DNA of 64,000 bases from positions 2,480,001 through 2,544,000 of the forward strand of contig NC_031674.1 of NCBI RefSeq assembly GCF_001640025.1, in the 5' to 3' direction. The first letter of the stretch is position 1; each line of letters starts with the position of its first letter. The position numbers were made by a program, and so were the translations under genes. The notes under the pieces were generated by a model. That model saw only the letters and a program-made list of their open reading frames with translations, was not told where the DNA came from and ran no database searches. This stretch comes from Sugiyamaella lignohabitans (Eukaryota > Ascomycota > Dipodascomycetes > Dipodascales > Trichomonascaceae). This document shows positions 16,801 through 62,688 of the stretch, one piece after another.

Positions 16801-17604
16801 GCAATATTCATAATAGGACTATCTTCCAAGTCTATAATATTGACCAGAGGTATGATGATCTTAACATAGTCGCCTTCGTTTCGACTACGGAAGATCTCTT
16901 TCTGAAGTGCTTTCACCCACTCATGAGCAGCCTTTGCTGAATCGGCCTTGAATGTGTAGGTACGAGTTTCAGTGATAATACTGAAGGTGGAAGATTTAAG
17001 CTGTTCTTTCTCAAGGCCATGATGGACGATTTCGGCCTTTACAGCATAACGGAGGTCGATAGTTCCAGCAGGGAAGTACATTTCAGTGGCATTGGTATAG
17101 TAAGAAAACGAGTCGCTTCTTAGCACAAACCAAAATTTCGAAAACGAGGGAGTCTTTCTGCTCTTCTTTCGCAACGAGCCACTCTTGATAGAATCCGTCT
17201 GGTTTCGGGGCATATACGCAAAGAAGCAAGCATAGCTGTTTGTCAAATAGAGATGGCCCTGTAAGAGGATCTCCTTGAGCAGCCAGCATGGATAATCTAT
17301 CTTCAGTTAGTAACTATATATCATAACCACGCCACACATAGCTCGCGAAGCGAGCACAACGAGGTCTGGGGCAGCGCCTCAGCCACCGGAGGCAACAATC
17401 ACTTACCGCCCAGAAGAACATCATCAGAAGAAATTCCAAGCTGTTGGCGCAACTTATCGGTCAGGGCCAAAGCCCGTGAATTCTGGACTTTGGTAGATGA
17501 AGAGCGACCGCCATGTCTAGATGCAGGAGACTTGCTTCTAGATCTATTGCTAGTATCATTGACGACAAGAGATTGCACGCTGGTAGATAAATGACATGGT
17601 GTCG

Positions 17605-17639
<35 letters not shown>

Positions 17640-18370
17640 ATGGATGGCGATGTCTCAGAGCTCTCAGCAGGGGTAGAGGTCTCGTCCGATTTGTTAGTCT
17701 TTTCCTTGTTGCTCTCAGTAGTAGCAGCTCCTTCCGCAATAGTATCAAGAGACGGAGTCAAAGACTCTTCGCTGGGGCTACGGGCAGGTGTTAGAGGCTT
17801 AGGACTTTGGGTGCTATCAGCACCATCTTTCTGGTCTTCATCATCACTGGTGGCAGTATTGCTAATGGAAAGTTTGTGTCGACTCGAGTCGGTGGCACTC
17901 TTCGAACCAGGAGTCTTGGAGGTGGTCGCAGGACGTCGAACAGGTGAGGCACTGCGAGAACTGGTTGACGACTGAGGAGCGAGGCTGGTGTCATCATCTT
18001 CATAATCATCACCGTCGTCGCCATAGTCCTCATCCACGTCGTCGTCAAATTCGTCGAAACGCTTGGATTGGGCTCGAGCAGTAGCAGTCAGAAACGAAAA
18101 CATAGAGTGGGCCATACCACGGCCATCAGCACGATCTTCAGATGACGACCGTCTTGAAGGCGATCCAGATCGAGATGAAGCTTGTGAAGATGACGAGCGA
18201 GTATGACCAAACAGAGTAGCCTTAATGCTAGATCCAGACGGCAGGTGGTCTTCACTTTCATCACGCTCATGATCTTTTGATTCGCCTTCAGACTCTTTTT
18301 TAGAAGCCCGGCCTCTACCCCTATGGGGGTGCAGGTTCGGCAAGAACATTGAAGCTGATGGTGGGGTCAT
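13818..18370 (-). CDS. ATG26: Sterol 3-beta-glucosyltransferase, two exons
   Basis: Exon 1 is 18370-17407 and exon 2 17296-13818, giving 1480 residues. The 110-base intron starts GTAAGT and ends CTAAC-TGAAGATAG, and half of it is a hairpin element (17341-17393). The join reads LLG-DYPCWLLKEILLQGHLYLT, restoring the first GRAM domain seen in Atg26. A PH domain follows (GSLRKKSRKTPSFSKFWFVLR), then a second GRAM domain (FRAHFSLGETDNLVATYFC) and a UDP-sugar transferase domain starting LLTIGSRGDVQPYISLGKG, with HHGGSGTTGASLRAGLPTI in the donor site. It adds glucose from UDP-glucose to ergosterol at membranes; in some yeasts it acts in pexophagy. The N-terminal 320 residues are low-complexity, with an 11-Gln run. 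Size agrees with other yeast Atg26 proteins. Confidence 0.95.
17341..17393 (-). repeat. Hairpin element copy 1, in ATG26 intron
   Basis: 53 bases. In the sense of ATG26 it reads forward from GCCTCCGG. Terminal hairpin GCTCGC-TTC-GCGAGC; the internal stem is slightly decayed (CTGAGGC/GCCCCAG). Confidence 0.9.
17606..17638. repeat. CTG/CAG trinucleotide run
   Basis: Eleven CTG units on the plus strand, which is CAG in ATG26 and encodes 11 Gln in its disordered N-terminal region. Confidence 0.95.
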
Positions 18371-18625
18371 TGTGAGTTTGTAATGATCCCACTAGTACCA
18401 GTTACCAGTCAGAACAGTCGATAGAATCACAGAAGTGTTCTTCACTTTAATTCGTTTTCTTATTTGAATCACAATAATCAGAGTTCTTCTCAGTTGTTGA
18501 TTCGGCTGCTGCTCCTGAGTGTCTCAATACAAAGTTCACTCAGACGATATCCCAAAAGATACCGTGCGATCTGCTAAACAAGTAAAATCACAATTACTCT
18601 GATTTGACCAGAACCCACTCTGATT

Positions 18626-18662
18626 CAACGCTGATTCAAATTCAATTCAAATTCAATTCAAT
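18626..18662. repeat. ATTCA-type tandem repeat
   Basis: Alternating ATTCAA and ATTCA units, in the ATG26 upstream region. Confidence 0.7.
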
Positions 18663-19517
18663 TTCAACTCTTGCCACTTCTACAATCACCTTCAAAACCG
18701 TTTATAAGTCGGTGGTAGTAGGTTATGTATACTTCGGCAGGGCTGCTTCTGCTGCTGCTGCTTGTCTCTCTTATCTTATCTGCTGATGCACAAGCACCAT
18801 GTAATAACAGTAGTCAAATATAGTGGTGGTACAGGAAATGAAGTAATAGAATAGACGAGCTCAGTAGGATTTTAATCAATTTAAAAATTCCAAAAAATCC
18901 AAAATCGTTTTATTTCAATTTGTCTTAATGTGTGTTTGTTTGATTAAAGAAGAAAAAAAGCGAAGTTTTGTCAGATTGCTTCTTGAAGGCGCCGAACGAA
19001 AAAAAGTGCCCAGATATACTCGTCTGCCAGAAGTGCCGAAAACCCAATCTTCCGATGCGCGTCTGCCTCAATATTTATTCCTCCCGCATACTTACTTACC
19101 CAAAGATTATTGAATGACGATCTCCCAAGAGGCAACTGCAGATTGCGCACCGAATGCACCGGTACCTCCCGCAGCACCGACGTTCGGCCTTTTGAAAAAG
19201 AGAAATAACCTCTATAGTTTAAGTGTACAGGACCGATGCTGCACCGATCTGTCCTAATTCAGTACCAGTCTAGTACAGGTACAGAAGAAGAGTAAATCAA
19301 GGTTACTCGGGAAGCCCACAACCTCGATATAGAATACTATCACAAGGGCTTTTGTGCTAGTACTGACTCTACTGGAATAATTATTCAACAATTAACAATC
19401 AGCAATGGCAATTCACTTACACTATAATAGACACGACACGCTATGCCCTTTGAGTAGATGTGTCTGGCATAGGTATACGTACACCCGCGTCACATAGAGT
19501 TTGTAGCAGCACTAATT

Positions 19518-19605
19518 GGTGATATTTGGTAGGGATGTGTAGTGGTGATATTTGGTAGGGATGTGTGGTGGAGATATGTGGTGGGGAGTATGTGTGGATG
19601 CGTAG
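19518..19605. repeat. 26-base minisatellite
   Basis: Two near-exact units containing GATATTTGGTAGGGATGTGT, followed by diverged GT-rich units (GGAGATATGTGGTGG). G-rich on the plus strand. Confidence 0.75.
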
Positions 19606-20456
19606 TCCTAGGTAATCTGTGCCAATTGGTATGTGGTGGAGACAGTTGATAGGTGGTGAGAGATATGTCTAGTTCCTAGGTAGTTAAGTGATATGTACTA
19701 TTCCCAGGGAGTAAGTGGTAGCTATAACAGTAATTGACCTATGTATGACCAAAGTAACTTAACAGCTCATTTCCTGTGCCAGCATCAAATATATATATAT
19801 ATATAAATACAAACGATTGGCAAATACCAAACCACTTCCCGGTGAAAAAACAACCCAATCAAGTATCCACACAGAAAACTGTGGCCAATATACGACAAGC
19901 ATGGAACAATAGGCCGACAATACATACATAACTCCGAAAAAATGTCATATGCAAAGCGGACAATCAAACTTACTTACTTCAACAGGCATATGTCCGGGAT
20001 TTCCACCTTTGGTGCGGTGGAGGGGTGGCATATCCTGGGCACCATGCAAACTCTCAACAAACAACAATTTCCCGTCCCGATTAGCTTGCCAGCCTAAAAT
20101 GATGACCACAAAATTAGATTCGGGAGCATCAGGTAAACAAACGACGCCACCGGACCGTTCGGACGGGCTAGAAACTGCACTTCCTCCCCGTCTTTCCCTG
20201 ATAATACCACCATAACAAGGGCCACACTAAAGCTTGTTTAGGGACTATAAAGGGTCATCATTACTCAAAACAAAACGTCCGTGAAACCAGTCCGCGGTGG
20301 TCAGTCCCGTCTCTGTTCACAGTGCCAATTGCCTCCTGACATCACCCGCTACGGTTTTAGATTGGGTGCCTGGGTTGTTGACCCCCGTAATATAGATTCA
20401 TACCTGAGTCATACTTTTCTCTGTCTTTTCGTAAGTTTAATGGGTTTGGGAGACAT

Positions 20457-20513
20457 GCCTCCGGCGGCTGGGGCTCCGCCCCAGACCCCGTGGCTCCTCT
20501 CGCTGCGCTCGAG
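20457..20513 (+). repeat. Hairpin element copy 2
   Basis: 57 bases, GCCTCCGG start, internal stem CTGGGGC-TCC-GCCCCAG, 3' end CTCTCGCTGCGCTCGAG. Identical to copy 3, which lies inverted 1 kb away. Confidence 0.92.
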
Positions 20514-21473
20514 TCGTGCGTGTGGGTTGGCATCTGGCAGTAAAATTGACGGTTGGCAGCTGATGGTTGAGGTGGATAGGTTTGGGCCTGGGGGGATCAC
20601 AATTGCCTAATTAAACAAGCTATGCTTCGGTGCAGGGGTGCGAAGTTCGATCGGCAGCAGCGAACTAATTGTCCTGTGCGGCCTGCTCATCTGACTGGCA
20701 GATGCCGTTGAACTGTGCAGTCAACTGGCACATGCATATGCATTGCTCGTGCGAGCGGGCGGAATAATTCCATCCCGCCCCTGCCAGACGTACGACCGAC
20801 CTAGCTTCTACGGACTATTACGTACCCGAACTCGGACTAATTTAGATACAGCCATTTGTGACTTTTCACGTTTCAGGATTGATCCGATTGGCAGCGTAGT
20901 CAGTAGTCAGCCGGTTAATTATATCAGAAAAGTGGCCACAGAAACTCGTCAATGTTCAGAGAGGAGCACTGTGCCTCGGTTCCAAAGCTCGATCTCTTCC
21001 ATAAACATATGAGACGCTGAAAAACAAGACCACACAAATCTCTGAGCTAACTCCGGCAGGTAACAGCAGCAATTGTTACCCTCAGGTGACATTCCACGAC
21101 CATAACAATTGCACATGAAAGTCTGGTTCACAAACGGCTTCTGACTGTCACACATCAGAGTCCAGATGTTCATGTGAAAGAACCCGACGACGCCTCTGCT
21201 CATCCAAATCGCATGTGCAACTGGCAATCTCATCTCACTTCACCTTCGCCACCTATCCATTGGCATCACACCACTGGCACGGCATTTGCATCCTGTGACA
21301 TAATCGGAAAACCAAATCGAGAATTGCAAAAACACAAATCGTCTGCACATGCGCGTTTATACCGAGGTAGCGGTGAACCAATGCACCATGCAGGGTCCAC
21401 CACCCCTGCATCACACGAAGATCCCTCTTCCGACATGACACCCCAAAATCCAGACCCAACCCCGACGCAACGA

Positions 21474-21530
21474 CTCGAGCGCAGCGAGAGGAGCCACGGG
21501 GTCTGGGGCGGAGCCCCAGCCGCCGGAGGC
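21474..21530 (-). repeat. Hairpin element copy 3
   Basis: 57 bases, the exact reverse complement of copy 2. Just downstream of the PEP12 3' end. Confidence 0.92.
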
Positions 21531-21575
21531 AACACAGGAACCCTCCAAGTATGCTCTCTTTACGTATTAAATAAA

Positions 21576-22560
21576 TCACCCTACAAAGATCTGTCGACCA
21601 GTTAGTATCTCCTTATGCCACATGGATCCGGGTTTTACTTACACCCAGCAGGATCACTGCCAAAATAACGATGAGAATTATCAGCAGACACATGGCTCTG
21701 CCGCGCGAGTTGCGTTGGTACCGGGCCGCTTTGGTCAGCTGTGTCGAGGCGTCTCGCGTGGCCATGGCCACATTGTAGATATTGGCTTCGATGTTGTCTG
21801 AAGGTTAGTGGTGTGGTGTGGGTGGGAGGTGGGGTGCAGCCTCCGGCGGCTGGGGCTCTGCCCCAGACCCCGTGGCTCCTGCTTCGCAGGAGAGGGAGGG
21901 GGTGGACTCACCTATGATTGTGCCTTGTTCGGTAACGATGGTGCTGATGTCGGTGAAGATCTCGTTTAATTCTTCAATTCCGTGCTCGATGCCTTGGATT
22001 TCGAGCTCACGCTCTTGAATTAGTTGCTGTTGGTAGTCGACTTCTTCTTGGGATAAAGTGGTCGCTGTTTGCTGCTCAAGAAGGCTGTGTTGTGGATTGG
22101 CATCTTGACCGTCGGCATGGTGGTTGGTGCCGTCAATGTCGTCTGGGTGGGCTTGAGATGATGCAATGTCTGTCTTTGCTTGAATGATATTGGATCGCTG
22201 CTTCTGCGCTAGGTCTCGTTGGATCCCTTGGAACTCGGTTAATGCCGTGCTGAACTCTCGTGATAGCTTTTGTTGAGTGAATTTCTGTGACGCTGCGCAA
22301 TCTGTCCAGGTCTGCATCGACCGCACCGAACTGCTCAACTCTTTGAACTTCTGTCTTGTGGATTCCGCTACATCCACTGCTCTTTCTTCAGTGGCCACAT
22401 CTGGTTTCGAATTCAGGGTTCGCAGCAACCGCTGTAATGATACAATATTGGAGTTGATATCGAACAGTCCTGTGGCGACTGTCTCCGCCAGTCTATCAAA
22501 TTCTGGAGAATCCGAGTACGGAATCTGCGCTTCTAAATCTACATCATCAGAGAACGACAT
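21576..22560 (-). CDS. PEP12: Endosomal Qa-SNARE (syntaxin), three exons
   Basis: Exons 22560-21912, 21797-21643 and 21590-21576 give 272 residues. The start is ATG 22560 (MSFSDDVDLEAQ); the frame upstream has no ATG. Intron 1 (114 bases) contains a hairpin element, intron 2 is 52 bases. The SNARE motif runs ERELEIQGIEHGIEELNEIF to DNIEANIY, with the central glutamine of a Q-SNARE in VTEQGTIIDNIEANIY, and ends in one membrane helix (CLLIILIVILAVILLG) with a four-residue lumenal tail. The N-terminal part is an Habc-like helical bundle. The match is closest to yeast Pep12, which mediates fusion at late endosomes. Without the second exon the protein would lose its membrane anchor, so splicing is required. 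Confidence 0.9.
21839..21892 (+). repeat. Hairpin element copy 4, in PEP12 intron 1
   Basis: 54 bases, antisense to PEP12. Internal stem CTGGGGC-TCT-GCCCCAG (loop variant) and terminal stem CTCCTGC-TTC-GCAGGAG. Confidence 0.92.
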
Positions 22561-22779
22561 CGTAAAAGAAAACTCGCTCAATCAATAGCTCGTTGTTGTT
22601 CTGACTTCTAACTAGTTTCTTGTCAAACTTGTTAATATAAATAAGAAACTGATGCACCTAAATGTACATGATAAGTGAGCTTAGATAGGCTTAGAGTTGG
22701 GATCAGCAGTTGTTTCTCAAAATCGTTCTATTATAGACCCTGATAGAGCTTATAAGGGCTCCGGAGACTTTAACTTATC

Positions 22780-23174
22780 TCATAGCACAATTCCTACAGA
22801 TACGAGGGCTAAATTATAATTTAATGGATCAAAGCACCCAGTGAATTTGAAACCAGTTTCGGTTTTACTTGTCTCTTTTGATTTGTCGGGTTCTGAATTG
22901 GGATCGTACTCCGCATTTAAGGGCTGCTGTGACAGGATCTCCATCGACTGGTGAAAGCCGTACACCGTTTGCAGGATGCAGCAGCTTAATTTAGTTTGTT
23001 GTGGTAGTATACATTAGAAAAATTCATGTTCTGAGATTCTGTTTCGCTTAGAACCAGCCTGTTCCGAGTTGTTTCACAAATAGCTTGTAATAACAACCCA
23101 AAATCCAAATTATAACAGATATCACGATAAAATCCCAACTGAAATTCAAAGATAAGAACTTACGTGTCAGCCAT
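22780..23174 (-). CDS. Possible small spliced gene, unknown
   Basis: A tentative model: exons 23174-23164 (MADT) and 22984-22780 give 71 residues with consistent phase, ending in a hydrophobic stretch NYNLALVSVGIVL. The 5' site GTAAGT is good but the 3' site TTAAG has only a weak branch motif. No family recognised. It would share a 90-base divergent promoter with TFC3. Treat as a hypothesis. Confidence 0.28.
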
Positions 23175-23264
23175 AATTACACGGACATTGCGACCAATTG
23201 GCACCACGGCCAGCCAGCCACATAGTAATTCATTTACTCAGACTTGCAACCAGGATACCTAGCA

Positions 23265-28106: not shown

Positions 28107-28582
28107 TAAATGCTTCTCCCTTTTTATTTTATTTTTAATATAATATTTATTGCGTTTATCGTCACCCTGATCTCGTGGCTCTCTGTGCAAGATACTAAGC
28201 ACCTAAACAGAGCCTTCAAAAGGTGTTACAAAACTAAGGATTGATGTGTGAATGCTATGTCCACTCACTTGATGAATAAGTATTCAAGTCTTGCCTGGAA
28301 TATTATTATCCTGCAACCTAATCACAAGTATCGTTGCATATATTAATGCAGGGTTCATATTCCTGTAACTCAGCCGCATTCGTCGTTGAAAGTTGACCGT
28401 ATACATCACCAATGTTTATTGGCCTTACTTACATCAATAACTTGCAGATAATCAACATCATCACAACAACGGAATGCTGATGACTTAGCACCCTGAGAAC
28501 AACTGAATGCACTGCATTATCACAGAATATTAATTTGTTTTTTACAGACAAAACAGAAGGAGTGCAGTCAGCATATGGGTCG
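28107..28582. other. Intergenic TFC3 to ESC2
   Basis: Nothing recognised. The ESC2 frame is open upstream to 28535 but has no ATG before 28583. Confidence 0.5.
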
Positions 28583-29971: not shown

Positions 29972-30076
29972 GATGTGTATGGACGTATATGTATTATATT
30001 ATTTATTGATATCGACAACTGACATGTTCAAGGTCTGCTTGAATCTTTTGACGGACGTTATGCATTATCTTTTGCA

Positions 30077-30084
30077 TCACGTGA
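30077..30084. promoter_or_regulatory. TCACGTGA palindrome
   Basis: Perfect 8-base palindrome 84 bases before the BIG1-like start; matches the core of Cbf1/bHLH sites in yeasts. Function inferred. Confidence 0.45.
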
Positions 30085-41494: not shown

Positions 41495-41550
41495 GCCTCC
41501 GGGGGCTGGCTAGCAGAGCCCCAGACTCCGTGGCTCCAGCTTCGCAGGAG
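41495..41550 (+). repeat. Hairpin element copy 5, in inferred PRI2 leader intron
   Basis: 56 bases, the most decayed clear copy: the internal stem is disrupted (GGGGCTGGCTAGCAGAGCCCC), and the terminal stem CTCCAGC-TTC-GCAGGAG has one mismatch. Antisense to PRI2. Confidence 0.85.
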
Positions 41551-43514: not shown

Positions 43515-44885
43515 CGCTTACGCGCCCTTATGTATATTATGACACATATATTCTATTTCTGCTTAACTTATTGTAATATTTGATGTATCTATCAGAGTGT
43601 GCTTCTGGTGGTTGGAACTCTGTTCCTCCTTGACTTGATAGCTTCCTCTGGCTTCACTCAAGTGATTCTCTTTGCAAGTTGCATCTCTTCTGAGAGTGAA
43701 GTTCAGGAGAAAGAGACTTTCATTGTCGGTGGGTACTTGGGTGTGATAAGGGGTAAGGTGAGACGCCGAAGTAGCTCAAGACTTACCCGCTTTCGGGGCG
43801 CAACCGGACCGTTGTGTAGCAAACGGTTTGTGGGGTAGTCGTTGACTCGGATCCGAAACCTTAACCCTTATCTAGATGATGTCTGTAGATCTGCGGTTTC
43901 CATGCAGTGAGCAAAAAAGAAACTTGGCTCTATTGTATTGTTATTCAAGGTGACTATTACAATGACTGCGGAACCAATATTAGATATGTAGTATGAAATA
44001 GGACATTGTTTCCAATAGTCTTCCTCCTATTCGAACCGGTTCATAAATTGTAACGTGGCCACCCTTTAACCAGTCAGTGCGAACAGCCTCCAGAGACAAA
44101 GTGACTGCCAACTGTTGATAAGATTAAATATAATTCTATAATTCTCATGGGTGTGATATTGCTAGACTCGAGAGAAACAATAGGAGCTATAGGTTCTGGG
44201 ACATTGCCGCCAGAGACTCTCTTTCTCGTTAGATGGATAGCACTAATACCGCTAGTAAATGAACTACTGTTGGCAAATGTACATTATTGATAGTTGTCAA
44301 ATCCACTAAGTTCGACTTGACTACTGCGGGGTTAAAGTAAATATCGGACTCCATCAGATCCGGTATGTATACTAAATTCGATGGATATTTTGACCTTACA
44401 TTTGTGGGTCTGCACCAGTGTAGTGACCCCCACCCGTGTAAATCGCATACGATATGCTATCAAAAGGAATTGTTTTCTTTATCTCCGGACAACTAACAGC
44501 CGTATATCTTTAGTTCGGAAAAAGTGTTCCAGGTTCTGTTTAATGCTATCCGGAGTTATGTTTGTACTTATTGGAGAAACTAGTCGCTTGTGCACGAGGT
44601 AGCCATACGATATCAAATGTCGTAGTTGGTTTGAGGTCCTATCTAAATTCCGATTTCCGCACGCTTTTCCGCAAAATGTACGGCTTAGTTATAGCACACC
44701 CTAATCAAGCTAGGATCCGCCGTTATCCGAAAAAAGATCTTGCATATCGTGAAACTAATATAACCAGTGAGATTAATTTTTTTTTTTTATTTTGCTTCCC
44801 CGTAAGATTTCCATTCTAGCATTTAAAACGGCTAGTATTTCCGGTTTTTGGGGAATACTTGATAGAACAGTCGTCTCCGAATACA
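43515..44885. other. 1.4 kb intergenic region, HAP5 to DIC1
   Basis: No gene, tRNA or hairpin element recognised. Short frames here have no family resemblance. Confidence 0.5.
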
Positions 44886-53800: not shown

Positions 53801-55326
53801 AGTCAAGCAACGCACTAAAGCATCACTCAATCCACTGGCAAATATGAGCTCCAAAATCTCTCTAGTAATATGTTTAGCAAGAGTTTGGCCAACAGCACCA
53901 GCCAGCATTCCCAAACAGCTAAAAATAGCCCCTTCCTGCTCCTTCCTAACTCGTCTAAAATAGTTAGTTCTGCTCCTTATAATAGGACCTCTCACTATCT
54001 CCTGCGAAGCAGGAGCAACGGGGTTTGGGGCGGAGCCCCAGCCGCCGGAGGCACAATGTCACCCAAAATAACATACCCTTTTGACATGAGCCCTTCACGG
54101 ACATTTTCCAGGATGGGTTCGAGGTAGAAAGTCATGTTACTGCGAACGCTGACGGCGATGTTTCCGATCGAGAGAAAAACGAGTCCCCGGTCTTTTTCTT
54201 TCTTGAGCTGGCCAATAAGATGTGCGGTACAGTCGACCAGGTACCGCTTGGTGAACTCTACAGGGTTGTACTTTGCGAGATCTGGCAGGATCATGATGAC
54301 GGTGCGACGAATAAGCGGGTCCTTGTGATCTTTGTATCGTAGCACAGTATCACACACCTCGATATACCTTGGTTGCATAAACATGCCAGCGTGACCGAGA
54401 AGCTCGCGGTATACTAGTAAACTTCCGTGAATGGTTTCGGTGATAGCAGTCTTGAACCCACTTTGCGCTTCTTCTAAAATCTTGTTATACCATTGCTGTC
54501 TTTGAACACTATCTCTAGCGAAAATAATCTTTAAACAGGCACTCAGTGCATCAGCAGCGTCGACTCGAATGGCCAATCTCGGGTCTCGCAATGCTACCCA
54601 GATCGATTCTATAATCTGTCCAACATATGAATACAAGAGTGTCGGACTGTTTTCGGCCATGGCCTTGATTTCGAGCACAGCAGCGTGTCTTCTCACTTCC
54701 TGGCGGTCTGATTGCAGCCATTCTAAGCATCGCTTGACTTCGAAATCGACTAAATCACCTGCCAAACTGCCGGAAATCGTCAGCTTACCAAGTGCACTGG
54801 CTGCAGCTCTTAATACATCGGTATCTGTAGTCTGAACTACCGATCGTAAGTAGTTCACAAACCGGGTGATTTTTACAGCTGCTTCTTCTCCCGTATCGGC
54901 ATCAATCAACTGGTCAATGGCGTAGACGGCACCCAGCCGAAAACTCGGGTCGGGACTCCTTAAAAGTTCAAAAATGCGCTTGTTGATGTCATTATTATAC
55001 CTAGCAAACTGCTCTGGCGGTATCTCTGGTGCAACCGACACTAGATGTGTTTTCAGGTTCTCAGCTGCCCGCTTTTTTTCTTCATGCGATCTACTCTGTT
55101 AGCACATGTCTTCTAACTAACCATACTTCCATTCCCTCCTTCTCTTCACCTGGCAACTAATCTCCCCATAACCAAACAAATAATCCTGTAAGTACATCAC
55201 AAGGACCAATGGGCTACAAATATCATGTTTCGGTGATAAAAGTCTCTGTTTTGGGACTTACTTCGACTTCAGGCCTGCGAATATCGTGGACACAACTGTG
55301 CTGTCCAGCGTCGTTGACGCCGACAT
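47846..55326 (-). CDS. TOR: TOR serine/threonine kinase, three coding exons
   Basis: Exons 55326-55262, 55090-54077 and 53954-47846 give 2395 residues (Saccharomyces Tor2 has 2474). Exon 1 encodes MSASTTLDSTVVSTIFAGLK; intron 2 (54076-53955, GTATGT...CTAAC-TATTTTAG) contains a hairpin element, and the join reads SKG-RVRKEQEGAIFSCLG. HEAT repeats fill the first half, then the FAT domain, the rapamycin-binding FRB domain near 1850-1950 (VLWHEQWHEGLEDASRYFFG), the kinase (GHEDIRQDN, catalytic DRHPSN near 2177, HIDFGD) and a C-terminal FATC ending HFVGWCSFW. The serine before the FRB helix whose change gives rapamycin resistance in other yeasts is present (LVSFELIRV), so sensitivity is expected. 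TOR is the core of TORC1 and TORC2. An additional intron (55485-55329) in the leader is inferred from CTAAC-AACCCAG. This is the only TOR gene here; whether a second exists cannot be seen. Confidence 0.97.
53999..54052 (-). repeat. Hairpin element copy 6, in TOR intron 2
   Basis: 54 bases, in the sense of TOR. Terminal stem CTCCTGC-TTC-GCAGGAG as in copy 4; the internal stem has one changed base (GCCCCAA). Confidence 0.92.
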
Positions 55327-55381
55327 GTCTGGGTTGTTAGATCTCTTACTTCAATTAGTACTTGTGGGTTGTCGGCCAGTT

Positions 55382-55431
55382 GCCTCCGGCGGCCGGGCTC
55401 CGCCCGGACCCGTAGTGCTCGCTTCGCGAGC
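55382..55431 (+). repeat. Hairpin element copy 7, in inferred TOR leader intron
   Basis: 50 bases, antisense to TOR. Internal stem CCGGGC-TCC-GCCCGG, terminal stem GCTCGC-TTC-GCGAGC. Confidence 0.92.
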
Positions 55432-55485
55432 TGCTGAGACGCCCTGCGTCCTGTTCAGTGTTTAGTCAAGAGAGCTCGTTCTTAC

Positions 55486-56593
55486 TTTACTGTGTTGTGT
55501 GTGCAGTTCTGAGCTCCAAATATACTGCTATACCTTGTGAAATGCTTCAGGAGTTAGTTTTATGCTTCAAATTACAGCACCAGGGGGATAAATAGTGCCC
55601 GGCATGGACCCTAGCCAGCCAGTGGCATTCATATATTCACCCTGTATAAGACCGTTTTCCAGATTTTCCCTGAATTTGTCCACTTACCAGTCTTCAATGT
55701 GTTTCTAGAGATACAAAATACCGATATTCAGTTAGTACAATCAATTTTCTGGAGGAATTGCCTCCTCTTCTCTATCGCTTTCTTGATAAGCGATGAATCT
55801 CGAACACAACATGGTTCACATGATGCTGAGATGCAGTTTGGGTTAAGCGCGCTCGCAGCGGCTACTGCCGTCACGTGATGTTTATATCCATGTTTGTGTT
55901 AAAACTGTCGATAAATCTTGATTTAATCTTATTTTCCGGATGGACTTTTTTATTAACAATGTCTGTGTATCAAGGGACACAGCGGATTAACTTTGGTCTC
56001 AAATAATGACCGTAGAACGAAGAGATGACAAGCCCAACCGAGGCTCATGGTCATATCACTACCTTCCTGTAGTCGACAATAAAAAAGTCTCATTTCAAGA
56101 ACACTGTAGTCCTGTACTTACTTTACACTATACTCGGTATCCTACAAATTTTATAGTTGTTCCTTTTCTTTACCTTAATGCTTATTATTTGCACAATTGA
56201 TACCCGCTTCTCACCCTGATATGTATGAGTGGTTAATATATATGCATTGTACACTCAACACATAATACCAAGATACTATAAAATATACTGATACCCTCTA
56301 ATGTAGAGCCAATAAATTCAAAGTTTAACACTTATACTTGATCATCTAATAATTAAAAAGTGTTAAAGTGTTCTGGAAAGTGAGATCCCAACAACAACTT
56401 GTCTAGATAGGAAACACAGTAGCTGCACGATAAGCGGTAGAAACTGCGATCATCACTGCAGGGCCTGGAAAGAATTTTTTTGTTTTTGAGCCGCACTCGA
56501 AAATAAATTACCACTATACATACTGAGGTAGCTGATATCGACACTTGATATACGCCTTAACTGTATCGATATTTCAGATAAAAAAAAGCAGAT
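55486..56593. other. 1.1 kb divergent intergenic region, TOR and TMA23
   Basis: Contains a TCACGTGA site at 55871. A frame at 56006-56200 (MTVERRDDKPNRGSW) has no recognised relative and is not called as a gene. Confidence 0.5.
55871..55878. promoter_or_regulatory. TCACGTGA palindrome
   Basis: Perfect palindrome between TOR and TMA23, 545 bases from the TOR ATG and 716 from TMA23; target unclear. Confidence 0.4.
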
Positions 56594-57388
56594 ATGGATT
56601 CAGCGAGCTATCTGCAGTCTTTCGGCTGGTCTCATGGCCAGCCTCTCCAGAAAGGTGGTTTGAGAAAGCCCATTCTTGTCAAGCATAAGAAAGACACCAA
56701 GGGCCTCGGTCATACAGCAGGAGACCAGGAAGCCTGGTGGGAGAGGATGTTTGATGGCCAGCTCAAGGGTCTTGATGTCAGCACCAGTGGATCTAGTAAA
56801 GACGGTGGCGTGACTTTCAAACAGAACGAGATCAAAGTTTCTGCTGTCAGCCAAAATGTATCCCCCCTGTATCGCATGTTCGTCCGAGGTGGAGTGCTAG
56901 AGGGCAGTATACCTCCAGAGGGTCTATCGAGTTCCAGCAAAAAGAACCAGAATTTAAAAGATGAAAAGAAGGAGTCCGACAAAAGTATTAAAGACAAATC
57001 AAACAAAAAGAAGAGCAAAAGCAAGAGCAGCAGTGATTCCAACAGCAACAGCAGTAGCAAGTCAAAGAGCAGTAAACGAAAGAGAGATACTGATAGCGAC
57101 GACAGTGAAACACAAGAAAACGACAACAAAGCCAGCTATGACGATAAAAAGAAGTCCAGGAGAGACAGCAAGGACAGTAAAAAGAGCAAGTCGAGCAAAA
57201 GCAGCTCTGGTTCTAGCATGCCAGCATCCAAAACCAGCAAATCTGACGGCAGCAGCAAATCCAAAAAAGCTCGCAAGTCTAAACCCAGCTCGACATCCTC
57301 GTCTTCATCCCCCACACCCTCCCCCGAAGAAGACTGGATGCGCCAGCTCATCCGCACCCACGCCGACGCTCAAACGGTCTCTGCATAG
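56594..57388 (+). CDS. TMA23: Ribosome-biogenesis G-patch-like protein Tma23
   Basis: 264 residues. The first 110 match yeast Tma23: MDSASYLQSFGW..GQPLQKGGLRKPILVKHKKDTKGLG, EAWWERMFDGQLKGLDV and SPLYRMFVRGG. The remainder is a Lys/Ser-rich low-complexity tail (KKKSKSKSSSDSNSNSSSKS), the type found in nucleolar proteins. Tma23 associates with ribosomes and pre-ribosomes. Length is close to the Saccharomyces protein (211). The stop is followed by an inverted pair of hairpin elements. Confidence 0.93.
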   Translation: MDSASYLQSFGWSHGQPLQKGGLRKPILVKHKKDTKGLGHTAGDQEAWWERMFDGQLKGLDVSTSGSSKDGGVTFKQNEIKVSAVSQNVSPLYRMFVRGGVLEGSIPPEGLSSSSKKNQNLKDEKKESDKSIKDKSNKKKSKSKSSSDSNSNSSSKSKSSKRKRDTDSDDSETQENDNKASYDDKKKSRRDSKDSKKSKSSKSSSGSSMPASKTSKSDGSSKSKKARKSKPSSTSSSSSPTPSPEEDWMRQLIRTHADAQTVSA

Positions 57389-57459
57389 CTACACCCCTCT
57401 GGCATCACACCAGTCTTTAATTTATTATATTTGCATCTATCTTTGTGGCCTGGCCACAT

Positions 57460-57510
57460 GCCTCCGGCGGCCGGGCTCCGCCCGGACCTGGTTGTGCTCG
57501 CTTCGCGAGC
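57460..57510 (+). repeat. Hairpin element copy 8
   Basis: 51 bases, CCGGGC-TCC-GCCCGG internal stem, GCTCGC-TTC-GCGAGC terminal stem; pairs with copy 9. Confidence 0.92.
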
Positions 57511-57603
57511 GGCGTGGACCCTGCAGCGGACCCTGCGTCAAGCCCTGTCCTCTGTGTATGCCCACACCAACTAAGCAATCCCCCCAACACCTCTCTCCCA
57601 CCC

Positions 57604-57653
57604 GCTCGCAAAGCGAGTACAACCAGGTCCGGGCGGAGCCCGGGCCGCCGGAG
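57604..57653 (-). repeat. Hairpin element copy 9
   Basis: 50 bases, inverted relative to copy 8 and of the same CCGGGC subtype. Terminal stem ACTCGC-TTT-GCGAGC with one mismatch. Confidence 0.9.
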
Positions 57654-57917
57654 TGTTGAAATATGATCGATCAGCCTTGTATAAAAGTTACAGTAAGTCC
57701 CACCCTGAGCATAGAACATTGATAGTAAACTTTAAGGTTCTCACCTGCAATACTATTAGTGGCTCGTATTGATTGCGAAGATATAAATATGCAGGAAATG
57801 TGTCTAGTAGTAATTTCTAATAAGTTGAGTACTATATCAAGCAATTCTGCTATAAGAAAGATTACTGAATAACAACCTCAAATTGTTCACTAAGTCTATT
57901 CTTTTATCGATCCTGCA

Positions 57918-58079
57918 ATGCCCCCTCCCCCTGAGACGCGGCTGTGCCGAGATCGTAAAGTGGTGAAGCAGGTCGTGGAGAGAGCATGTCGCTCGTCATT
58001 CACACAGCATGGAGCAACGGCAGCCGTGGCGGAAGCTGTTGTGGGTCAAACAACCATATCCGGACAATTTCGTGGATAA
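57918..58079 (+). promoter_or_regulatory. Upstream open frame overlapping GPI2 start
   Basis: 53 codons (MPPPPETRLCRDRK...) from ATG 57918 to TAA 58077-58079, in a different frame from GPI2, whose ATG is at 58009. A second out-of-frame ATG lies at 57986. If the mRNA leader includes them, translation of GPI2 would depend on leaky scanning. Confidence 0.35.
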
Positions 58080-58872
58080 ATCGTTTCTGTCGCAGTTGAA
58101 ACGCAATTCCAACGTCCAACCGTACTCGTACTGGCGACTGATCTGCGATTCGTCAGTGATTCTGGTGCATCTGTGTTCAATAGCCATTTTTGTCATTGCA
58201 TTTGTGGGTATTTATAATCGAGATTGGAACCCCGTGTGGTTTGCTGGTACCAGTGGACTCACCACAGTAGCAGGATTTATACTATGGGACCTACGGACTC
58301 ATGTGGTTCATGACAGAGGCACCATTCTGAAAAGCTCACTGCTCATTCTATTCACAGTTCTGGCACTATCACCTGTCTTGAAATCACTCACTCAGTCCAT
58401 TTCCTCAGACTCTATCTGGTCGATTGCCTGCTGGCTCTGTGTAGCCAACGTATGTCTATATGACTACTCGTACATCTCGCGAACTGGGTTCAAACTTATG
58501 CTCTCCACCAACCTAGCACTCTCTACAGCCATAGTCCTGGCATCACGACTCAACACATCACTATCAGTCTTCTGTTTTGTTCTTTACTCGATCCAGATTC
58601 TCGGAGTACTACCGACATTTGCTCAATGGGTGCGATCCTCGTCGGAAACCGCACACTGGGTCCTTCTGGGAGTGCTGCTGACCCTCACCGACGTCGGACT
58701 ATACATCATTGGTGGGATCTGGGCGCTCCTAGTATGGATCGTGGTCCAGCTGACAGTCACCATCGTCATCCCAGGCTGGTTCCTGAGACTTCAAAAATAC
58801 AAAAACGAGATCCAGGGTCCCTGGGACCCTGCCAAACCCATCGTCAAAACCAACCCCGCACCCCCGCCCTAA
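58009..58872 (+). CDS. GPI2: GPI-GlcNAc transferase subunit (PIG-C)
   Basis: 287 residues. The N-terminus PWRKLLWVKQPYPDNFVDKS followed by FL is the diagnostic PIG-C/Gpi2 block. About seven or eight hydrophobic segments follow (for example VILVHLCSIAIFVIAFVGIY, WVLLGVLLTLTDVGLYIIGG), as expected for this polytopic ER protein. Gpi2 is part of the complex that moves GlcNAc from UDP-GlcNAc to phosphatidylinositol, the first step of GPI anchor synthesis. Length matches Saccharomyces Gpi2 (280). The 3' side has a pair of hairpin elements. Confidence 0.93.
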   Translation: MEQRQPWRKLLWVKQPYPDNFVDKSFLSQLKRNSNVQPYSYWRLICDSSVILVHLCSIAIFVIAFVGIYNRDWNPVWFAGTSGLTTVAGFILWDLRTHVVHDRGTILKSSLLILFTVLALSPVLKSLTQSISSDSIWSIACWLCVANVCLYDYSYISRTGFKLMLSTNLALSTAIVLASRLNTSLSVFCFVLYSIQILGVLPTFAQWVRSSSETAHWVLLGVLLTLTDVGLYIIGGIWALLVWIVVQLTVTIVIPGWFLRLQKYKNEIQGPWDPAKPIVKTNPAPPP

Positions 58873-58920
58873 ATCTCCCCCCATTTACCCCTTATTTATT
58901 CTCATACACTGCCCGAAGCC

Positions 58921-58972
58921 CTCCGCGAAGCGGAGCCACGGGGTCTGGGGCGGAGCCCCAGCCGCCGGAGGC
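58921..58972 (-). repeat. Hairpin element copy 10
   Basis: 52 bases, terminal stem CTCCGC-TTC-GCGGAG. Ends 21 bases before copy 11, in the opposite orientation. Confidence 0.92.
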
Positions 58973-58993
58973 ACCACCGGCGTCCCCCCAAAA

Positions 58994-59045
58994 GCCTCCG
59001 GCGGCTGGGGCTCCGCCCCAGACCCTGTAGCTCCGCTTCGCGGAG
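58994..59045 (+). repeat. Hairpin element copy 11
   Basis: 52 bases, same CTCCGC/GCGGAG terminal stem as copy 10. Together the pair could fold as one large cruciform with a 21-base centre. Confidence 0.92.
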
Positions 59046-59248
59046 AAGAAGACCCCCTGAGATCAGTGCGGGTTAGGGCATATGTTACCCGGCTGCGAGC
59101 GAGGCCATGAAAAAATTATGACTGCAGATGTATGTGGCTAGGCAGTAGCAGGATTGATTTGATTTAGTGTTAATACACCCGTGTGTTGAGTGCGATTGAG
59201 TAAGCTGTTAAGTGGATTTTCGAGATCGTTACACGCAGAACAGAGACA

Positions 59249-61492
59249 ATGTCGGGATTTGATCAGGACAAGTTTGCCCAGGACTTCCAGGCCCGTGCCC
59301 AGGTGGGTGGAAATGGCCAGGCTCCCGGCCAGAACCAGAACCAGGGCCAAGGTCAAGGTCAAGGTCAGGGCCAGAACTTCCAGTATAGTTTCCAACCGGG
59401 TCAGAACTTCCAACCTGGTGGTCAGACTTTTACTCCTGGACAATATGGCCAGTATGGAGGCCAACAATATGGTCAATATGGCCAACAACAATATGGTCAA
59501 TATGGTCAATATGGCCAGCAACAGGGCCAATATGGCCAATATGGACAACAGCAACAACAGTATGGCCAGTACGATAATACCTATAACCGCGGTGGTTATA
59601 ACAACAGAGGAGGTTACAACAATTACAACCAATCGTACAACAATAACAATAACTACCAGCAAGAAGACAGTGGAAGTACTATGACTCTGGAAGAGTATCA
59701 GAACAAGAAGAGCAGCCTGCCTCCACCACCTGCCAGAAGCAGACCTTTAGCAGGAGGTGCTGCTGCCACTCCTTCTTCTTCTTCTTCTGGCTCTTCTATT
59801 ATCACCGGTACCAACAAACCCAAGGTTTTGAAGCTTGGTGAGGAGAAGAAGCCTGAGGCTAAGCCCGCTGCTGCATCTACTCCAGCCAAGACTGAAGCCA
59901 AGACTGAAGCCAAGTCTGAGGTCAAGACTGAGACCAAGACTGAAGTCAAGTCTGAAGCCAAAACTGAAACCAAGACTGAAGCCAAGACCGACAGCAAGGC
60001 TTCTACTCCATCTATTACTCCTTCATCCACTCCTAAGCCAGAAGGCAAATCCAGTGCAGCAGCAGCTGCTGCAGCTGGTAAAAAGGCAGACTCACCAGCT
60101 CCATCTGCTAAAAGTGGAGAGAAACAAGATGCTGATACATTGACCAAACAACAGGAAGAAGAGCTCGACAAAGAGGTGCTTGCTGATTTGTTTGGATCTA
60201 CTGGTGGTAAAGAGCATATGTCGATTATCTTCATGGGCCACGTCGATGCTGGTAAGTCCACTATGGGTGGTAACTTACTGTACTTGACTGGTGCTGTTGA
60301 TAAGCGTACAGTTGAGAAGTACGAGCGCGAGGCCAAAGATGCTGGTCGTCAAGGTTGGTATCTGTCTTGGGTCATGGATACCAATAAGGAAGAGCGTGCC
60401 GAAGGTAAGACTGTCGAAGTTGGTAAGGCATTTTTCGAGACTGAAAAACGTAGATACACCATTTTAGACGCGCCCGGCCACAAGATGTATGTTTCCAGTA
60501 TGATTGGAGGTGCTTCGCAAGCCGATGTGGGTATTCTGGTGATTTCCGCTAGAAAGGGTGAATATGAGACTGGTTTCGAAAAGGGCGGTCAGACTAGAGA
60601 GCACGCTGTTCTTGCCAAGACTCAAGGTATTAATAAGTTGCTGGTGGTGGTTAATAAGATGGACGACCCTACTGTGCAATGGAGTGGTGAGAGATATGAG
60701 GAGTGTACTAAGAAGCTGAGTGTGTTCCTCAAGGGCAGTGGATATAATAAGACCGAAGTCACTTTCATGCCAGTATCTGGATATACCGGAGCTGGTCTTA
60801 AAGAGCGAGTTCCCAAGGATCTGGCTCCTTGGTACGACGGACCCTCTCTTTTAGAGTACCTTGACGCCATCTCCATTGAGGATCGTAAATTAGGTGCTCC
60901 TTTCATGATGCCTGTTTCTGGTAAAGGTAAGGATCTCGGAACCATTGTCGAAGGTAAGGTCGAGTCTGGTAACGTTCGTAAGGGCGAGTCGTTGATTCTC
61001 ATGCCTAATAAAACCCCTGTCGAGGTTTTGGCGGTATATAACGAGTCTGAAGCCGAGGTGCCTGCTGCTATTTCGGGTGACCAGACCCGTATTAAACTCA
61101 AGGGCATTGAAGAAGAGGATGTACAAGTGGGATACGTGCTGACGTCGGCTAAAAACCCCGTTCACACTGCCACTAAGTTCCAGGCCCAAATCGCCATTCT
61201 CGAGCACAAGTCCATTATCTCGACCGGTTACGGTTGTGTCATGCACGTCCACACTGCCATCGAGGAGGTGGTGCTGACCCAACTGCTCCACAAGCTAGAG
61301 AAGGGCACCGGCCGTAAGTCCAAGAAACCACCTGTGTTTGCCAAAAAGGGCATGATGGTCATTGTAGAGCTCGAGGCATCCGAACCCGTCTGTCTCGAAC
61401 CCTTCAAGGACTACCCCCGTCTGGGCCGTTTCACCCTCCGTGACCAGGGCCAGACCGTCGCCATCGGCAAAATCACCAAAATCGTCGCCTAA
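59249..61492 (+). CDS. SUP35: Translation termination factor eRF3
   Basis: 747 residues. eRF3 is the GTPase partner of eRF1 in peptide release. The GTPase motifs GHVDAGKST (about residues 329-337), DAPGHK and NKMD are intact, followed by the two beta-barrel domains, with the family end LRDQGQTVAIGKITKIV. The N-terminal domain (1 to about 145) is prion-like: first GQ repeats, then YGQYGQQ-type repeats, then an Asn/Tyr-rich block (RGGYNNRGGYNNYNQSYNNN). The middle domain is charged with KTEAKTE-type repeats and a short polyalanine. This is the N-M-C plan of Sup35, but the repeats come before the Asn-rich block, the reverse of Saccharomyces. Confidence 0.97.
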   Translation: MSGFDQDKFAQDFQARAQVGGNGQAPGQNQNQGQGQGQGQGQNFQYSFQPGQNFQPGGQTFTPGQYGQYGGQQYGQYGQQQYGQYGQYGQQQGQYGQYGQQQQQYGQYDNTYNRGGYNNRGGYNNYNQSYNNNNNYQQEDSGSTMTLEEYQNKKSSLPPPPARSRPLAGGAAATPSSSSSGSSIITGTNKPKVLKLGEEKKPEAKPAAASTPAKTEAKTEAKSEVKTETKTEVKSEAKTETKTEAKTDSKASTPSITPSSTPKPEGKSSAAAAAAAGKKADSPAPSAKSGEKQDADTLTKQQEEELDKEVLADLFGSTGGKEHMSIIFMGHVDAGKSTMGGNLLYLTGAVDKRTVEKYEREAKDAGRQGWYLSWVMDTNKEERAEGKTVEVGKAFFETEKRRYTILDAPGHKMYVSSMIGGASQADVGILVISARKGEYETGFEKGGQTREHAVLAKTQGINKLLVVVNKMDDPTVQWSGERYEECTKKLSVFLKGSGYNKTEVTFMPVSGYTGAGLKERVPKDLAPWYDGPSLLEYLDAISIEDRKLGAPFMMPVSGKGKDLGTIVEGKVESGNVRKGESLILMPNKTPVEVLAVYNESEAEVPAAISGDQTRIKLKGIEEEDVQVGYVLTSAKNPVHTATKFQAQIAILEHKSIISTGYGCVMHVHTAIEEVVLTQLLHKLEKGTGRKSKKPPVFAKKGMMVIVELEASEPVCLEPFKDYPRLGRFTLRDQGQTVAIGKITKIVA

Positions 61493-61559
61493 GCGACCCT
61501 CCCCCCACCTCATATACGCAATCTATTAAATGTACCACCTTCTACGGGCCCCAGGTCCT

Positions 61560-61615
61560 GCCTCCGGCGGCTGGGGCTACGCCCCAGACCCCAGGCTCCT
61601 CTCGCTCCGCTCGAG
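61560..61615 (+). repeat. Hairpin element copy 12
   Basis: 56 bases, internal stem CTGGGGC-TAC-GCCCCAG (loop variant), 3' end CTCTCGCTCCGCTCGAG like copies 2 and 3. Confidence 0.9.
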
Positions 61616-61699
61616 TCGGGGTTCAGTGGAACCTGGATCTGGGGTCTGGGGTCCTTTCGATTCACGTCAAACGACGTTGTCAACGACACCCGAAAACCA

Positions 61700-61750
61700 T
61701 CGAGCGAAGCGAGCCACGGGGTCTGGGGCAGCGCCCCAGCCGCCGGAGGC
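61700..61750 (-). repeat. Hairpin element copy 13
   Basis: 51 bases, inverted to copy 12, internal stem CTGGGGC-GCT-GCCCCAG. Confidence 0.9.
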
Positions 61751-61948
61751 AGCAGGGCACCAAGCAAATGGAAATGTAATGTATAATAACAACAATGAAG
61801 ACAACAAAGAAACAATAAAAATAAGGCTGAGGTCGGCAGAAGTGCGGTTAGTGGATGGGCGAGGAGGGCAAATTAAGTAGGATTTTTGTAAACAAAAAAC
61901 ATAAGCAAGCGAAAAACCACGAGATCAATATTCTAATTCTCCTATCGT

Positions 61949-62545
61949 TTACAATACAATACACTTCTTCTTACGTTGGGCCTTGTCCTTGACCATGAGG
62001 GCGGCTCGGGTGGCGTGCTCGAACACCTCGCGGACACCGGTCTGGTTCTTGGCCGAGCACTCGAGGTACTTGATGGCTCCGATCTTATCAGCGACGGCCT
62101 GACCCTCGGAAGAGGCCACAGGACGTTGCGACGAACGGCTAAGCTCCTCGATGGTACGAGGGTCGTCACGCAGGTCGACCTTACATCCGACGAGAATAAT
62201 AGGGATTCCCTGGCAGAAGTGCAACACCTCGGCGATCCACTTCTCTTGGACGTTGTCAAGAGAGTCGGGCGAGTCAATGGCAAAACAGATGAGAATCACG
62301 TTGGAATCGGGGTAAGACAGAGGTCGAAGACGGTCATAGTCTTCTTGGCCAGCGGTATCCCACAGAGCCAGCTCGACCCGTCTTCCGTCAACCTCGACGT
62401 CGGAAACATAGTTCTCGAACACAGTAGGAACGTACACCTCGGGGAAAGTGCCCTTAGAGAATACAATCAGCAAACACGTCTTACCACAGGCACCATCACC
62501 GACAATGACGAGCTTACGTCTGAGTTCAGCTTGTTGGGAAACCAT
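61949..62545 (-). CDS. RHO1: Rho-type small GTPase Rho1
   Basis: 198 residues. P-loop GDGACGKT, effector loop [26 protein letters not shown] and SAKNQTG are all intact, with a polybasic KAQRKKK and a C-terminal CIVL box for geranylgeranylation. The Rho insert region ([20 protein letters not shown]) is present. Rho1 activates the beta-1,3-glucan synthase and protein kinase C and so governs wall integrity, downstream of TORC2 in yeast. Upstream, TTACTAAC-AGAAGAGCAG and a GTAAGT at 62988 suggest a 420-base leader intron (62988-62569) that includes a hairpin element. Confidence 0.97.
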
Positions 62546-62627
62546 TGCGAATCTATGTCAAAAATATTCTGCTCTTCTGTTAGTAATCTAGACAGGGGGT
62601 GTCAATGTTGAGGTCGGAGGGGGGTGT

Positions 62628-62688
62628 GCCTCCGGCGGCTGGGGCTCCGCCCCAGACCCTGGTTGCTCCTCGAGCAAAGCTCGAGGAG
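62628..62688 (+). repeat. Hairpin element copy 14, in inferred RHO1 leader intron
   Basis: 61 bases, antisense to RHO1. The terminal hairpin is the longest: CTCCTCGAGC-AAA-GCTCGAGGAG, a perfect 10-pair stem. Confidence 0.92.

What the first reader, a model, noticed from the sequence alone, without database searches (positions are those of the whole stretch)
17341..62688. A nuclear family of 50-61 bp multi-hairpin elements, 14 clear copies
Copies at 17341, 20457, 21474, 21839, 41495, 53999, 55382, 57460, 57604, 58921, 58994, 61560, 61700 and 62628 share a plan: 5' GCCTCCGG(CGG), an internal hairpin (CTGGGGC..GCCCCAG or CCGGGC..GCCCGG), a linker like GACCCCGTGG, and a terminal hairpin. They have no coding capacity and no long terminal repeats. 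The base before GCC is T in most copies. The layout resembles the double-hairpin elements and GC clusters known from fungal and algal mitochondrial DNA, but these copies sit among nuclear genes. I know of no named nuclear counterpart in yeasts; that novelty is inference.
Basis: partly seen in the sequence, partly recalled or inferred. Interest (0 to 1): 0.88.

Follow-up and report, generated by a model that had tools for sequence, protein, structure and literature searches.

The report
Thousands of REPIN-like yeast hairpin repeats
A budding-yeast nuclear genome carries thousands of tiny GC-rich double-hairpin repeats, often arranged as inverted pairs like bacterial REPIN elements, and their fixed sequence boxes resemble repeats of sulfate-reducing bacteria; this may be a mobile hairpin system of a kind not yet described in a cell nucleus.

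Summary
In detail: all 14 copies are real, and they are a small sample. The head GCCTCCGGCGG occurs 3143+3143 times in the 15.93 Mb genome (pattern read backwards: 2+7). Size and four contigs fit Sugiyamaella lignohabitans CBS10342 (inference). In a 264 kb sample with 176 arms, 48 convergent pairs lie under 330 bp apart; 34 join arm types A and B, 25 of these 130-144 bp long. The A/B junction occurs 571+563 times genome-wide (control 0). One such pair, tested, folds into a long hairpin; 48 pairs show no target-site duplication; pairs avoid coding DNA. This is the grammar of bacterial REPINs. The boxes GCCTCCGGCGGC and GACCCC around a variable hairpin recur in 26 of 59 Desulfovibrionaceae genomes, 14 of them with five or more matches. 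No Y1 transposase was found in the yeast. Best reading: REPIN-like non-autonomous elements with an unknown mobiliser. Horizontal origin is possible, not shown.

The parts
17341..17393 (-). solo arm, type C terminal hairpin GCTCGCTTCGCGAGC
20457..20516 (+). solo arm, type A terminal hairpin
21471..21530 (-). solo arm, type A
21839..21892 (+). solo arm, type B, inside a predicted intron of a syntaxin gene
41495..41550 (+). arm, type B, altered inner-hairpin centre
53999..54052 (-). solo arm, type B
55382..55431 (+). solo arm, type C with CCGGGC..GCCCGG inner hairpin
57460..57510 (+). left arm (type C) of a 196-bp convergent pair
57604..57655 (-). right arm (type C, head diverged) of the same pair
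58921..58972 (-). arm, type D terminal hairpin; head-to-head with the next
58994..59045 (+). arm, type D; head-to-head with the previous
61560..61618 (+). left arm (type A) of a 191-bp convergent pair
61700..61750 (-). right arm of the same pair, shortened terminal hairpin
62628..62688 (+). arm with extended terminal palindrome CTCCTCGAGCAAAGCTCGAGGAG

Best explanation
These are non-autonomous, REPIN-like mobile elements in a yeast nuclear genome. The mobile unit is most likely the inverted pair (arm A, variable core, arm B, about 137 bp). As single-stranded DNA it folds into one long hairpin or, arm by arm, into two small hairpins. An enzyme supplied in trans, not identified here, would recognise the fixed boxes (GCCTCCGGCGGC, the hairpin, GACCCC) and insert the element after a G-rich stretch ending in T, without duplicating the target. 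Copies persist where they do least harm: between genes, more often towards 3' ends. Solo arms would be decayed or rearranged pairs plus minor solo subfamilies. Shown: copy number, pairing, folding, covariation, no detectable target-site duplication, intergenic location. Inferred: mobility, the single-stranded intermediate and the trans-acting enzyme.
For: Copy number with controls. Neighbours under 300 bp apart: 46 convergent, 6 divergent, 22 tandem. 34 of 48 convergent pairs under 330 bp are type A/B, 25 of these 130-144 bp long. Both strands of one 136-bp pair fold at -69 and -70 kcal/mol as DNA, z -10.9 and -12.7. In 49 distinct arms 97.7% of pair cells are standard against 89.8% in shuffles, and 65 cells are changed on both sides against 23.6 (0 of 500 shuffles for each). 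Linker ends agree within pairs in 17 of 47 against 9.4 shuffled (4 of 5000). Terminal loops, read on the other strand, are GNA in 148 of 154 parsed arms, the loop class of extra-stable DNA minihairpins (PMC6479982, passages). T at -1 in 161 of 176 arms; no target-site duplication in 48 pairs. 1 of 48 pairs and 5 of 80 solos lie inside ORFs of 200 aa or more, against 48% of random points. Paired arms are less diverged than solos, 1.44 against 2.16 mismatches in 33, p 0.008, as Bertels and Rainey report for REP doublets (PMC3116915, passages).
Against: No mobiliser found: no Y1_Tnp in the genome; the Helitron search is uninformative because its control rang nowhere; other transposase families were not searched. 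No empty site and no nested insertion with both halves was seen in the sample. The paired-versus-solo difference weakens to p 0.033 when four very diverged solos are dropped. The count of further pair types does not exceed shuffles (456 of 500 at least as high). Single arms fold only modestly better than shuffles (z -1.1 to -2.5). Density follows regional GC, which conversion or mutation bias could also produce. 80 of 176 arms are solo.
Confidence: 0.55

Rival explanations
1. A foldback MITE family: the arms are terminal inverted repeats of a DDE DNA transposon, mobilised by an autonomous relative encoded elsewhere.
For: Inverted arms of about 60 bp with variable interiors, over a thousand copies of one arrangement, T and A at the outer borders.
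Against: No target duplication of 2-8 bp at three border offsets in 48 pairs; solo type C arms with a sharp end at the terminal hairpin; two different arm types per element; similar fixed boxes in bacterial repeats. DDE transposases were not searched for, so their absence is not shown.
Confidence: 0.2
2. Amplification without a transposase: GC-rich palindromes spread and are homogenised by template switching, break repair and gene conversion.
For: Two arms with inverted terminal loops (L016 7578, L021 2136), fused or truncated copies and tandem partial heads, agreement between arms of a pair, correlation of density with local GC3.
Against: Over a thousand exact matches to one A/B junction pattern, a fixed border and T at -1 in 161 of 176 arms are easier to explain by a specific enzyme.
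Confidence: 0.15
3. Mainly functional 3'-end elements (transcription terminators or RNA-processing hairpins) kept by selection.
For: 30 of 47 intergenic pairs lie nearest a gene 3' end, against about 43% of random intergenic points; 15 pairs in tandem intergenic regions average 0.30 of the way from the upstream stop.
Against: Density runs from 0 to 19 arms per 10 kb, so many genes lack one; 17 pairs lie nearest a 5' end; one copy sits in a predicted intron.
Confidence: 0.1

Closest known systems
REPINs / REP doublets of bacteria
   Same: Short conserved arms as inverted pairs, less conserved spacer, hairpin folding with compensatory change, extragenic, singlets more diverged (PMC3116915, passages).
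   Different: Eukaryotic nucleus; each arm has two hairpins; arms of a pair are usually of two types; no Y1/RAYT gene detected.
GCCTCCGGCGGC repeats of Desulfovibrionaceae (no published name seen)
   Same: Boxes GCCTCCGGCGGC and GACCCC around a hairpin in 26 of 59 genomes, 14 of them with 5 or more matches; in G001, three of six places picked for opposite-strand neighbours are convergent pairs 144 bp apart of two arm types; in the 10 loci fetched from G210 a second hairpin, T at -1 in 16 of 16 arms, and in 6 of 10 a truncated head 27-61 bp upstream.
   Different: Stems and second hairpins differ; bacterial stems vary widely; T at -1 only 15 of 26 in a mixed bacterial set and not in the one G212 arm; the 33-mer shared exactly with G210 is a rare local change in the yeast (4 copies).
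Hairpin-GACCCCG stretches in Streptomyces plasmids and others
   Same: Partial likeness to the inner hairpin plus GACCCCG: 51 plasmid records at E up to 10, 31 of them Streptomyces; best E 2e-3 with 8 places in one record.
   Different: Of the 20 rows listed, most cover the hairpin part and not the head.
Mitochondrial GC clusters of Saccharomyces (GC42)
   Same: Short GC-rich palindromic, TE-like DNA under structural constraint, with mergers (PMC4478555, passages).
   Different: Mitochondrial, AG target nucleotides; here nuclear, thousands of copies, paired arms. Sequences were not compared.
Double-hairpin elements of Allomyces mtDNA (recalled, not from a call)
   Same: Two adjacent GC-rich hairpins per element (recalled).
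   Different: Mitochondrial; nothing about them was tested here.

Membership tests
REPIN (REP doublet) | inverted pair of conserved arms with spacer, able to form a hairpin | tested here: met
   folding tested on one pair
REPIN (REP doublet) | compensatory change across the hairpin | tested here: met
   within arms; between arms, weaker:
REPIN (REP doublet) | doublets better conserved than singlets | tested here: met
   p 0.008; p 0.033 without four diverged solos
REPIN (REP doublet) | cognate RAYT (Y1 tyrosine transposase) in the genome | tested here: not met
   0 matches; the same search rang in 5 of 14 control genomes
REPIN (REP doublet) | excision or insertion seen in a population | not testable with these tools
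   no strain data
Desulfovibrionaceae GCCTCCGGCGGC repeat | boxes GCCTCCGGCGGC and GACCCC around a hairpin | tested here: met
Desulfovibrionaceae GCCTCCGGCGGC repeat | descent from a common element | tested here: inconclusive
   only the two boxes and the layout are shared; the shared stem variant looks independent; the hairpin-GACCCCG part also recurs in Streptomyces plasmids
DDE MITE | terminal inverted repeats with target-site duplication | tested here: not met
   inverted repeats yes, duplication no
tRNA-derived SINE | tRNA-like head or Pol III promoter | tested here: not met
   no tRNA or Rfam match in the window; promoter boxes not scored
Helitron | Rep/helicase partner in the genome | tested here: inconclusive
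   control rang nowhere
mitochondrial GC cluster | location in mtDNA | tested here: not met
   among nuclear genes such as TOR kinase and KAR9; the mtDNA itself was not available

The most novel reading that the evidence does not exclude
A bacterial REP/REPIN-type hairpin system crossed into a budding yeast and expanded in its nucleus to thousands of copies, moved through single-stranded DNA by an enzyme that is not a RAYT in the yeast and perhaps not in the bacteria either (6 of 12 repeat-bearing bacterial genomes tested lack a Y1_Tnp match). On rechecking I lowered this from 0.35 because one search shows the hairpin-GACCCCG part also in Streptomyces plasmids, which makes convergence easier.
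Probability: 0.3. Interest if true: 0.93.

Novelty: new variant of a known kind. Interest (0 to 1): 0.77.

Why it matters
REPINs are presented in the paper that I read in part (PMC3116915, passages) as bacterial and tied to RAYT transposases. A nuclear population of several thousand paired hairpins in a culturable yeast would let such a mechanism be tested outside bacteria, and the shared boxes raise the question of cross-domain transfer, of a common unidentified enzyme, or of strong convergence. For yeast genomics it would account for about 2% of the genome (inferred: 6286 heads times 55 bp) and goes with regional GC differences. In the listings I saw no title or abstract start that describes it; one search listed 25 of 578,397 papers and 12 of 337, so these two are weak. 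The likely genome paper (Bellasio et al. 2016) is not held.

Tried and rejected
SINE or tRNA origin: no Rfam or tRNA match in the window. Target-site duplication: none above shuffles. Empty sites by self-comparison of the masked 264 kb sample: 13 repeated segments, none bearing on elements. Nested insertions: only orphan or fused halves. Links of Y1 genes with the repeats in bacteria: no head within one mismatch in the 12 loci around Y1 matches. Plasmids and phages: no match to a 136-nt element at E 1e-5 in plasmids; with a 49-nt query at E up to 10, 51 plasmid records (31 Streptomyces, best E 2e-3, mostly the hairpin part) and 23 phage records (best E 0.02). Viral contigs: none with the 31-base core, 5 stretches with the bacterial-style module, of which only the arms were looked at. 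Protein homology for species naming: one weak hit, no use. An argument that yeast and bacteria share two exact 33-mer variants was dropped: the CCGGGGC variant has 4 copies in the yeast, inside ordinary yeast arms, so it probably arose locally. A first impression that a fifth of the arms lie in ORFs (35 of 176, ORFs of 120 aa or more) was dropped: with ORFs of 200 aa or more it is 1 of 48 pairs and 5 of 80 solos.

Limits of counts: 11 of 176 arms had no parsable inner hairpin and 22 no parsable terminal hairpin, 1 of 48 pairs was not parsed, 74 arms of types B, C and D were collapsed to 49 distinct and types A and E were left out. The 176 include a few partial heads and at least one chance hit (window 33284), so the number is slightly high. 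The sample is not random: 60 of its 264 kb is a dense stretch that I chose.
Full report
Setting. The window is G000:C2:2480001-2544000 of a 15.93 Mb genome in 4 contigs (contig lengths 5.93, 4.95, 2.77 and 2.28 Mb). Its genes are ordinary nuclear genes of a budding yeast, for example a TOR kinase and primase, KAR9 and an Rpp40 subunit. Size and number of contigs fit Sugiyamaella lignohabitans CBS10342, listed at 16.0 Mb and 4 chromosomes in PMC5499181 (passages); the species name is my inference.

Observation. A profile from 49 distinct arms (8 of them from the window) recovers these 14 at E 4e-7 or better, three much weaker stretches, and one match at E 0.2 in the reversed window. They are a tiny sample: the 11-mer head occurs 3143+3143 times in the genome against 2+7 for the pattern read backwards, a 41-mer core 168+183 times against 0, and head-hairpin-GACCCC 1858+1846 times against 0.

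Anatomy. I read 264 kb (the window plus 200 kb fetched, of which 60 kb is a dense stretch that I chose) and found 176 arms. An arm reads GCCTCCGGCGG, inner hairpin, ACCCC-type linker, terminal hairpin. By terminal hairpin there are types A (80), B (52), C (21), D (5), E (4) and 14 unclassed. Solo type C arms lose similarity right after the hairpin, while type A arms run on for some 20 weakly conserved bases (by eye). Arms are not placed at random to each other: neighbours under 300 bp apart are 46 convergent, 6 divergent and 22 tandem. Of 48 convergent pairs under 330 bp, 34 are A/B, and 25 of these are 130-144 bp long. The A/B junction occurs 571+563 times in the genome, control 0. The core between the arms is the most variable part, by eye.

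Structure. A 136-bp pair folds as one long hairpin on either strand: -69.0 and -70.2 kcal/mol with DNA parameters, z -10.9 and -12.7. Two single arms from the window fold more modestly, z -1.9 to -2.5 as DNA and -1.1 to -1.6 as RNA for one of them. In 49 distinct arms of types B, C and D, 97.7% of cells form standard pairs against 89.8% in shuffles, with 65 double-changed cells against 23.6 (0 of 500 shuffles reach either); pairs with a change on both sides are 5 against 3.4 (36 of 500), and the number of further pair types does not exceed the shuffles (456 of 500). Shuffles do not keep relatedness; sliding the partners drops pairing to 25-49%, but the structure was drawn from these sequences, which favours it. 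This is support, not proof. Within pairs, the last three linker bases agree between arms in 17 of 47 against 9.4 in shuffles (4 of 5000), whole linkers in 12 against 6.8 (59 of 5000), inner loops in 31 against 27.3 (141 of 5000). Read on the opposite strand, terminal loops are GNA in 148 of 154 parsed arms and inner loops in 124 of 165. GNA loops make extra-stable DNA minihairpins (PMC6479982, passages). Two arms carry the terminal loop inverted (L016 7578, L021 2136), as expected if these sites fold or switch template.

Borders. T stands before the head in 161 of 176 arms, and positions -15 to -4 are G-rich. No duplication of 2 to 8 bp above shuffles was found at three border offsets in 48 pairs. 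Complementarity of the two flanks is above shuffled at each of positions 2 to 12; I did not compute a significance for it.

Location. With ORFs of at least 200 aa, 1 of 48 pairs and 5 of 80 solos are inside, against 48% of random points; 30 pairs lie nearest a 3' end and 17 nearest a 5' end, against fractions of 0.223 and 0.297 of all random points. Fifteen pairs in tandem intergenic regions average 0.30 of the way from the upstream stop. Density per 10 kb correlates with GC3 (rho 0.84) and with intergenic GC outside elements (rho 0.86) over 26 bins. Paired arms are closer to the consensus than solos (1.44 against 2.16 mismatches in 33, p 0.008; p 0.033 after dropping four very diverged solos).

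Relatives. An exact scan of the bacterial and archaeal species genomes (84,980) with a 31-base core gave 3 stretches, all in Desulfovibrionaceae. In those three genomes the 11-mer head is itself a repeat: 161+160, 73+73 and 124+123 copies against 3+5, 5+10 and 9+13 controls. GCCTCCGGCGGC-N12-30-GACCCC occurs in 5 of 198 genomes drawn from the phylum, three of these with a single match that does not look like a hairpin, and in 26 of 59 drawn from the family: 14 with five or more matches, up to 88+92, and 12 with one to four, some of which are not hairpins; two genomes have one control match. In the listed matches (a capped list) the stem between the boxes varies widely and mostly stays complementary. 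In G001, of six places that I picked because opposite-strand heads were neighbours, three hold pairs 144 bp apart, each of two different arm types, and three hold wider ones. In 10 loci fetched from G210, the full copies have a second hairpin, T stands at -1 in 16 of 16 arms, and in 6 of 10 a truncated head lies 27-61 bp upstream; same-strand partial heads shortly before a full head are also seen in the yeast. In a mixed set of bacterial and viral-contig arms T at -1 was 15 of 26, and the one G212 arm has G. So the shared part is the two boxes and the layout; second hairpins differ. One exact 33-mer is shared with G210, but that stem variant has only 4 copies in the yeast, inside ordinary yeast arms, so it is probably a parallel change. 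The hairpin-GACCCCG part, mostly without the head, also recurs in plasmids, chiefly of Streptomyces (51 records at E up to 10, best E 2e-3), which makes convergence easier. I rate common descent as possible, not shown.

Mechanism. The grammar is that of REPINs (PMC3116915, passages): inverted arms, less conserved spacer, hairpin with compensatory changes, extragenic, worn singlets. The defining partner, a RAYT with a Y1 domain, is not found in the yeast. In 12 repeat-bearing bacteria, 6 have no Y1 match, and no head lies in the 12 loci around the matches found. Hence it works like a REPIN, but I do not file it as one. A single-stranded, hairpin-mediated insertion by an unidentified enzyme is the reading that I think most likely; a foldback MITE and enzyme-free template switching are the main rivals. 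No insertion polymorphism could be tested.

Literature. Searches for sequence strings (6 papers, all unrelated by title), for GC-rich hairpin or MITE repeats in yeasts, for Sugiyamaella, and for REP or REPIN elements with Desulfovibrio or eukaryotes showed no title or abstract start that describes this; several lists were capped. In the two other REP papers that I searched for passages (PMC3733652; PMC12306157) the places found do not mention such elements in eukaryotes or in Desulfovibrionaceae. The likely genome paper is not held, so prior mention there cannot be excluded.

Noticed in passing
window 21798-21911 (-): The type B arm at 21839-21892 makes up about half of a predicted 114-bp intron (GTGAGT, CTAAC, CAG) of a syntaxin gene; the ORF end at 21805 is an artefact of that intron.
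   Followed up: partly
window 44183-44213: Weak fifteenth copy, E 0.024, possibly a decayed arm.
   Followed up: no
L010 5132-5382: Three to four heads at 75-88 bp spacing in which the G-rich flank GGGATGGRGGNCAT recurs before the arms, so flank and arm may have been copied together.
   Followed up: no
L009-L028 and window, solo arms: Solo arms nearest a gene start have the strand opposite to the gene in 25 of 32 cases; cause unknown.
   Followed up: no
L011 1316-1570: Two pairs seem fused through the centre of an inner hairpin, with loss of the heads between them, suggesting hairpin-mediated deletion.
   Followed up: partly
G250, G247, G215, G208, G246, G043: Repeat-bearing Desulfovibrionaceae genomes without a Y1_Tnp match: their repeats may not be RAYT-driven.
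   Followed up: partly
plasmid NZ_CP108097.1 (Streptomyces sp. NBC_00239): 8 places match the hairpin-GACCCCG part of the yeast arm (best 93% over 30 bases, E 2e-3); a further hairpin repeat family worth a look.
   Followed up: no
L022 9389-9681: A minisatellite-like direct repeat unrelated to the elements.
   Followed up: no
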